This document shows positions 12,382 to 12,880 of a stretch of DNA of 34,641 bases, in pieces. Position 1 is the first letter of the stretch; the number at the start of each line of letters is the position of its first letter. Both the position numbers and the translations under genes were made by a program. The stretch is from an uncultured bacterium (GTDB taxonomy: Bacteria > Patescibacteriota > Saccharimonadia > Saccharimonadales > Saccharimonadaceae), in contig CACWJA010000005.1 in assembly GCA_902761145.1 (NCBI GenBank), positions 1 through 34,641 on the forward strand, read 5' to 3'. Below the pieces are notes generated by a model. It saw only the letters and a list, made by a program, of their open reading frames with translations. It was not told the origin of the DNA and did not search any database.

Positions 12382-12552
12382 CAACAAAATGCTTGCTGAG
12401 CAGAATAATTATAATACGTCGGTGTTGTTATGTATTTCATCATATTACAGATACCACGGATGAATACTCTGCCTGACAGGATAAATGATCCCGCATAAAG
12501 TGTGGGGTGCGAACCTTGGGCTCGAACCTGTCAGATATTTCAGGATCAAAAT

Positions 12553-12571
12553 AAGACTCCTCTGGAGTCTT
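12553..12571 (-). terminator. Terminator hairpin of array unit 2 (distal)
   Basis: AAGACTCC (12553-12560), loop of 3, GGAGTCTT (12564-12571), followed on the minus strand by ATTTTG. It follows the CCA of the 3'-end copy at 12582. Confidence 0.7.
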
Positions 12572-12665
12572 TTTCTGATTCTGGTATGCCCGACAGGATG
12601 GTTAACCTCGCTTCGCTCGGTGCGAACCCTGGGCTAAAATCCCGACAGATAGACCAAAACAAAAT

Positions 12666-12682
12666 AAGACCCTTTGGGTCTT
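12666..12682 (-). terminator. Terminator hairpin of array unit 1
   Basis: AAGACCC (12666-12672), loop TTT, GGGTCTT (12676-12682), then ATTTTGTTTT on the minus strand. Its stem differs from its neighbours at compensating positions, so pairing has been kept while sequence changed. Confidence 0.7.
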
Positions 12683-12775
12683 CTTCTGTTTTGGTATGCC
12701 CGACAGGATGGTTAACCTTGCTTCGCTCGGTGCGAACCTACGGCTCAAATCCTAGCGAATAGATCAAAACAAAAT

Positions 12776-12794
12776 AAGACTCCTCTGGAGTCTT
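12776..12794 (-). terminator. Terminator of tRNA-Arg
   Basis: AAGACTCC (12776-12783), loop of 3, GGAGTCTT (12787-12794), then ATTTTGTTTT on the minus strand, 9 nt past the encoded CCA. Confidence 0.8.
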
Positions 12795-12803
12795 CTTCTG
12801 ATT

Positions 12804-12880
12804 TGGTATGCCCGACAGGATTCGAACCTACGACCTTTTGCTCCGCAAGCAAACGCTCTATCCAGCTGAGCTACGGGCAC
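12804..12880 (-). tRNA. tRNA-Arg(GCG)
   Basis: 77 nt with encoded CCA. Acceptor GTGCCCG pairs with CGGGCAT (one G-T), anticodon stem TTTGC/GCAAA encloses loop TTGCGGA, giving anticodon GCG for CGC/CGU, and the T-arm carries GGTTCGAATCC. Most bacteria read these codons with ACG edited to inosine by TadA; a G34 tRNA does not need editing. It has a 60-nt structured leader and is followed by the array of its own 3' end. Confidence 0.95.

What the first reader, a model, noticed from the sequence alone, without database searches (positions are those of the whole stretch)
12470..12880. Tandem array of tRNA-Arg 3' ends, each with its own terminator
Behind tRNA-Arg(GCG) lie three ~111-nt direct repeats. 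The two intact units copy the tRNA from the T-stem to CCA plus the terminator, but with about 23 nt inserted where the T-loop should be (a TTCGC-ACCGA-GCGAA hairpin and GGTTAACC). Terminator stems differ between units with pairing kept, suggesting selection. Explanations: nested attachment sites left by repeated integration and collapse, a tRNA-derived repeat, or readthrough-driven CCA-ended small RNAs. Inserting in the T-loop matches where integrases often cross over in tRNA genes.
Basis: partly seen in the sequence, partly recalled or inferred. Interest (0 to 1): 0.75.

Follow-up and report, generated by a model that had tools for sequence, protein, structure and literature searches.

The report
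tRNA-end hairpin repeats in Saccharibacteria
Behind many tRNA genes of these tiny parasitic bacteria lies a copy of the tRNA's own end wrapped around a conserved folded hairpin, a pattern repeated across dozens of related species that looks like an undescribed family of small elements that settle at tRNA ends without destroying the gene.

Summary
In detail: behind tRNA-Arg(GCG), on the minus strand, lie three ~111-nt units. Two intact ones each carry a hairpin, a T-arm copy whose T-loop is opened by a ~23-nt cap, and an exact tRNA 3' end to CCA.
It is one case of a genome-wide pattern. 18 of 44 tRNAs in this genome are followed by a copy of their own 3' end, usually 57-183 nt on; controls give 0-1. 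The exact cap occurs only in Saccharibacteria, behind many isoacceptors. At tRNA-Arg(GCG), 23 of 30 loci have no copy; the six other occupied loci examined match their own tRNA, in three versions.
Longer units elsewhere carry a strongly covarying ~95-nt element (E) absent from Rfam. It occurs in 141 of 393 genomes of the order, typically 53-67 nt behind tRNAs and co-oriented, sometimes behind 5S rRNA. The window's units share this architecture but are not matched by the E model.
Collapsed prophages do not fit: spacing is tight, the genome has one Xer-like recombinase, and a real tRNA-integrated element nearby crosses over elsewhere. Best reading: small hairpin elements, without genes of their own, seated in regenerated tRNA/5S 3' ends. 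How they are copied, and whether they act as RNA, is open.

The parts
12804..12880 (-). tRNA-Arg(GCG), intact, parent of the array
   Evidence: ARAGORN, Rfam RF00005 66.2 bits
12763..12803 (-). First terminator-like hairpin (AATCAGAAGAAGACTCCAGAGGAGTCTTATTTTGTTTTGAT), starting directly after CCA
   Evidence: Sequence; repeat family D2
12733..12751 (-). Unit 1: inverted T-arm remnant (GATTTGAGCC) followed by T-stem 5' strand and TTCG (GTAGGTTCG)
   Evidence: Sequence
12710..12732 (-). Unit 1: T-loop cap CACCGAGCGAAGCAAGGTTAACC
   Evidence: Sequence; cap search
12692..12709 (-). Unit 1: exact copy of tRNA-Arg 3' end, ATCCTGTCGGGCATACCA
   Evidence: 18/18 identical to the tRNA
12652..12691 (-). 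Second terminator-like hairpin, stem changed to GACCC/GGGTC
   Evidence: Repeat family D2
12600..12650 (-). Unit 2: inverted remnant, T-stem 5' strand and T-loop cap CACCGAGCGAAGCGAGGTTAACC
   Evidence: Sequence; core at 12605-12628
12582..12599 (-). Unit 2: exact copy of tRNA-Arg 3' end
   Evidence: 16/16
12541..12581 (-). Third terminator-like hairpin
   Evidence: Repeat family D2
12471..12540 (-). Unit 3, degraded: CTGACAGGTTCGAGCCCAAGGTTCGCACC, a different filler, then ATCCTGTCAGGC
   Evidence: 12/16 match to the tRNA tail

Best explanation
The array is three head-to-tail copies of a small element without genes, of a kind spread through this order. Each unit is a terminator-like hairpin, an inverted stretch of T-arm, and a copy of the tRNA's T-arm and 3' end with a hairpin lodged in its T-loop after TTCG. 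Shown: units sit behind many different tRNAs in the same orientation, at short distances; they are patchily present at orthologous loci; the filler is shared between unrelated tRNAs, while the 3' end belongs to the local tRNA; a longer, structurally conserved version (E) sits the same way behind tRNAs and 5S rRNA. Inferred: the hairpin behaves as a non-autonomous palindromic element that lands at the T-loop, or the equivalent 5S site, in a way that leaves an intact gene upstream, so insertion is harmless and can repeat at the regenerated site, giving arrays. The copying agent is unknown: a trans-acting recombinase working on folded single strands, or replication template switching guided by T-arm homology.
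For: The exact 24-nt cap has 14 hits in 257 Gb of genomes, all Saccharibacteria; where enough upstream sequence is held, each follows a tRNA (Val, Gln, Ser, Arg, Lys, Glu), usually with that tRNA's own 3' end after it. Own genome 18/44 tRNAs with copies, controls 0-1. Nearest copies at 57-183 nt in 22 of 24 cases, none beyond 381 of 1400 nt. tRNA-Arg(GCG): 23 of 30 loci without a copy or cap; nearest copies in the window and five congeners are 16/16 identical to the host tRNA in three versions. E: 93.6% of cells paired, 582 double changes against 152 shuffled; 34 of 39 top hits lie behind a co-oriented tRNA, 31 of them at 53-67 nt. 5S: element followed by a 41-48-nt copy of the 5S 3' end. Also intergenic copies. 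In L337 an E unit and a further T-arm-derived hairpin unit stand in one array.
Against: No agent found: no Y1 transposase and no reverse transcriptase in this genome, only one Xer-like recombinase. No movement was observed. Strict orientation and spacing, and well-scoring E copies whose 3' tRNA copy has decayed, also fit a function in place. The E model does not match the window's units, so their kinship rests on architecture and position. Folding of the window unit is unremarkable against shuffles (z -0.8).
Confidence: 0.5

Rival explanations
1. Structured RNA gene: RNA polymerase reads through the first hairpin, and the unit is processed by tRNA enzymes into a CCA-ended hairpin RNA or acts as a processing or regulatory tail of the tRNA/5S transcript.
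For: Strong covariation with a conserved internal loop; co-orientation and 53-67 nt spacing; E also in tRNA-Ala-23S and 23S-5S spacers; several short units fold as minihelices ending in CCA; unit-bearing tRNAs less often have a T-run of 6 or more in the first 60 nt (8/32 versus 42/85, Fisher p 0.02).
Against: Patchy presence at orthologous tRNAs; E also in intergenic places, several antisense to neighbours; G-U pairs rare (2.5% versus 7.6% in tRNA stems), unusual for selected RNA; no transcript data.
Confidence: 0.25
2. No mobile agent: T-arm and hairpin palindromes provoke template switching in replication, which makes sense-antisense-sense copies; ectopic switching between tRNA genes spreads caps, and gene conversion keeps the 3' ends identical.
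For: Alternating sense/antisense T-arm segments; P1 arms that equal host flank plus its inverse (CCAAAC/GTTTGG beside tRNA-Ala in L353); very few G-U pairs; no transposase, RT or extra integrase.
Against: A ~95-nt element with a conserved internal loop in 141 of 393 genomes is more than local template switching would be expected to maintain.
Confidence: 0.18
3. Nested attachment sites left by prophages or integrative elements that used tRNA-Arg and later collapsed.
For: Direct repeats of a tRNA 3' end behind a tRNA are the classical footprint; the T-loop is a known crossover region (established knowledge).
Against: Tight spacing with no larger inserts; shared conserved fillers; single Xer-like recombinase; the real element in L240 uses the anticodon loop; cap absent from IMG/VR.
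Confidence: 0.07

Closest known systems
Escherichia coli tyrT repeats / rtT RNA (Rfam RF00391; from general knowledge, no paper found here)
   Same: Tandem repeats behind a tRNA gene, each containing the tRNA's 3' end including CCA.
   Different: One tRNA-Tyr locus, 178-bp units; here many tRNAs and 5S, a conserved hairpin in the T-loop, no Rfam match.
REP/REPIN palindromes and Rickettsia palindromic elements (general knowledge)
   Same: Short dispersed palindromes without genes, conserved foot motif and variable stems, intergenic copies in many species.
   Different: REPs depend on a Y1 transposase, absent here; these are concentrated behind tRNA/5S genes and accompanied by a regenerated gene 3' end.
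tRNA-targeting integrative elements (tyrosine integrase)
   Same: Gene stays intact while a copy of its 3' end lies downstream.
   Different: About 100-180 nt instead of kilobases, no integrase, many different tRNAs sharing one filler, T-loop rather than anticodon loop.

Membership tests
Integrative element attachment sites | Direct repeat of the tRNA 3' end downstream of an intact tRNA | tested here: met
Integrative element attachment sites | Integrase gene and cargo between the repeats, or a dedicated integrase in the genome | tested here: not met
   Units ~111 nt; one Xer-like recombinase on another contig; no copies beyond 381 nt in 103 tRNAs
rtT RNA / tyrT repeats | Match to RF00391 | tested here: not met
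   Not listed up to E=5 in the window or in 13 tRNA loci, several with units
rtT RNA / tyrT repeats | RNA released during tRNA processing | not testable with these tools
   No transcript data
REP/REPIN | Dispersed intergenic palindrome with conserved unpaired motif | tested here: met
   E; shown for the E class, not for the window's own cap
REP/REPIN | Associated Y1 transposase (RAYT) | tested here: not met
   PF01797 absent from this genome while 5 of 14 control genomes have it
   No match in 12470-12803 at E up to 5

The most novel reading that the evidence does not exclude
A CPR-wide family of gene-less hairpin elements is copied as folded single-stranded DNA (GCGNAGC loops, almost no G-U pairs) into the T-loop of tRNA genes and the matching site of 5S rRNA, regenerating the gene's 3' end each time, by a mechanism unlike any described transposon or integron.
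Probability: 0.25. Interest if true: 0.88.

Novelty: new variant of a known kind. Interest (0 to 1): 0.62.

Why it matters
It reveals an apparently undescribed, strongly covarying structured element attached to tRNA and 5S rRNA genes in a large, mostly uncultured branch of bacteria with tiny genomes. It bears on how selfish or regulatory DNA can live at tRNA ends without harm and on how reduced genomes keep repeats, and it supplies a covariance model that makes both the RNA and the mobile-DNA reading testable.

Tried and rejected
Prophage relic: rejected on spacing, lack of integrase and conserved fillers. Known RNA family: no Rfam hit other than tRNA and weak chance hits. Carriage by viruses: no exact cap hit in IMG/VR; the phage DNA matches listed lay in the tRNA region. 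Y1 transposase and reverse transcriptase in this genome: absent. Integrases in relatives searched for flanking units: one incidental unit within 10 loci, none shown to flank an integrase. Assembly artefact: rejected because the same architecture occurs in many independent assemblies. Hammerhead-like reading of GANGAG...CGAAAC considered and dropped: the essential CU and stem III are missing. Papers: nothing on tyrT/rtT or on such Saccharibacteria repeats was found; only open-licence papers are held.

Full report
Observation. The window belongs to a Saccharibacteria genome (G000, 872 kb, 11 contigs) of the same genus as Candidatus Nanosyncoccus alces (a congener's contig, G001:C4, has the same length and the same cap match as NZ_PRLM01000004.1). 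tRNA-Arg(GCG) lies at 12804-12880 on the minus strand. Behind it come three units of about 111 nt. Reading the minus strand, each intact unit is: terminator-like hairpin, inverted T-arm remnant (GATTTGAGCC in unit 1), T-stem 5' strand plus TTCG, the cap CACCGAGCGAAGCRAGGTTAACC, and the tRNA 3' end ATCC...CCA. The cap can pair as ACC-GA-GCGAAGC-GA-GGT, a stem with facing GA steps and a GAA loop. The third unit is degraded.

Genome-wide pattern. All 44 tRNA genes of this genome were located and examined. By a strict score, 18 of 44 have a copy of their own 3' end downstream; upstream control 0, wrong-tRNA control 1, shuffled control 0. The same test gave 4/31, 4/19, 7/23 and 1/25 in four congeners, and 2/23 and 7/20 in two genomes of other families. 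One G009 case, tRNA-Lys, is the true integrated element described below. With 1.4 kb of downstream sequence, 24 of 103 tRNAs had a copy: 22 at 57-183 nt, two at 354 and 381 nt, and none upstream. Fillers fall into classes: the window's cap; a short GGACTCG-GACCTTCGGTG-CGAATCC hairpin (Gln, Ser, Val); a GAACCGG...AAACGGTTC hairpin (Thr, Pro); minihelix-like hairpins (Ala, Gly, Glu); and a long structured class (Tyr, Ile, Arg).

Shared filler, local tRNA end. A scan of 84,980 species genomes for the exact 24-nt cap gave 14 hits, all Saccharibacteria, many from ruminant guts. They lie behind tRNA-Val, Gln, Ser, Arg, Lys and Glu genes, co-oriented, usually followed by that tRNA's own 3' end; two or three hits are cut by a contig end so that only part of the tRNA is seen. 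Cap variants keep pairing, e.g. ATC/GAT in tRNA-Lys and an extended GCGC stem in tRNA-Ser(TGA) of the same genome. At tRNA-Arg(GCG), 30 loci of the genus were compared: 23 have neither a matching copy nor a cap; the window and five congeners have copies whose nearest one matches the host tRNA 16/16 although host versions differ (GGGCAT, GGGCGT, GGGTGT); L269 is a diverged case. Filler identity across tRNAs plus local 3' ends means either that the element carries only the filler and the target supplies the ends, or that gene conversion homogenises the ends.

Element E. Five long-class sequences aligned cleanly. Twenty-two of 33 pairs change on both sides, none of 500 shuffles reach this, and slid controls collapse. 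The model R1 found 31 of 151 genomes of the family. On 61 sequences 93.6% of cells pair, with 582 double changes against 152 +/- 16 in shuffles. The caveat is that this alignment was fitted to the model; one search was not. Consensus: P1, (G/C)UAGGAG-NN-GAG, P2, CGAG-NCGACGCC, P1', P3. The second model R2 found 141 of 393 genomes of the order and weaker matches in other classes of the phylum. Of the 39 loci examined among the best hits, 34 lie behind a co-oriented tRNA, 31 of those at 53-67 nt, and 13 are followed by a perfect 16-nt copy of the tRNA end. Three of the other five are explained by a contig start, masked Ns, or a match that begins inside tRNA-Ala. Some E copies score well although the tRNA-end copy has decayed (L333, L342, L347).

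Beyond tRNA. In L294, L298 and L299 the element lies behind 5S rRNA and is followed by a 41-48-nt copy of the 5S 3' end; in L304 it lies in a 23S-5S spacer and in L296 in a tRNA-Ala-23S spacer. Others are intergenic. In L353 P1 is CCAAAC/GTTTGG, i.e. the tRNA's own CCA flank plus its inverse.

Mechanism. Against relic prophages: tight spacing, one Xer-like recombinase in the genome, and a true integrated element in L240, with an integrase gene, whose crossover lies in the anticodon loop of tRNA-Lys and leaves a 45-nt fragment. For a DNA-level element: patchy occupancy, arrays, shared fillers, intergenic copies, G-U pairs only 2.5% of pairs against 7.6% in the tRNA stems of this genome, and frequent GCGNAGC loops (29 of 89 P3 loops), a loop known to me as unusually stable in DNA. 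For an RNA-level role: orientation, spacing and covariation. No Y1 transposase or reverse transcriptase was found in this genome, so the copying agent is unknown. I favour a non-autonomous hairpin element seated in regenerated T-arms, at about even odds.

Relation of window to E. R2 does not match the window units. Kinship rests on the shared position (after GGTTCG in a T-arm copy), flanking hairpin, inverted T-arm and regenerated 3' end, on the shared C-GA-G steps, and on a mixed array in L337. The window array is therefore filed as the same kind of unit, not as a member of the E model.

Noticed in passing
L294, L298, L299: A structured element behind 5S rRNA followed by a copy of the 5S rRNA 3' end, the rRNA counterpart of the tRNA units.
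   Followed up: partly
L240:1665-1925 in minus-strand reading (G009 contig 19): A genuine tRNA-Lys integrated element with an integrase gene; crossover in the anticodon loop leaves a 45-nt displaced 3' fragment, and the complete tRNA has a variant T-stem.
   Followed up: partly
L363-L376 (G553, G513, G680): Other lineages of the phylum carry many intergenic E-like hairpins (GCGAAGTGAGTGAG...CGAGCGAACGAG), REP-like, away from tRNAs.
   Followed up: partly
L378, L379, L380: E-like matches overlap the 5' end of tRNA genes in antisense; P1 seems to use the tRNA acceptor sequence.
   Followed up: no
L318, L322: E copies lie just upstream of a TrpRS-like gene, on the opposite strand, in two species.
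   Followed up: no
L206, L216 (G040 and G058 tRNA loci): A different conserved filler, CCTTGCTTGGCCGAGCAAATGCTT, behind tRNA-Leu and tRNA-Arg in two families of the order.
   Followed up: no
L058 (own tRNA-Thr(TGT)): Two tandem units with compensatory hairpin change GTGGCTC/GAGCCAC to ATGGCTC/GAGCCAT, and the same filler behind tRNA-Pro(CGG).
   Followed up: no
L313:1205-1313 (own contig 3): An E copy between tRNA-3'-end-like CCA remnants with no tRNA gene left, possibly a lost tRNA locus.
   Followed up: no
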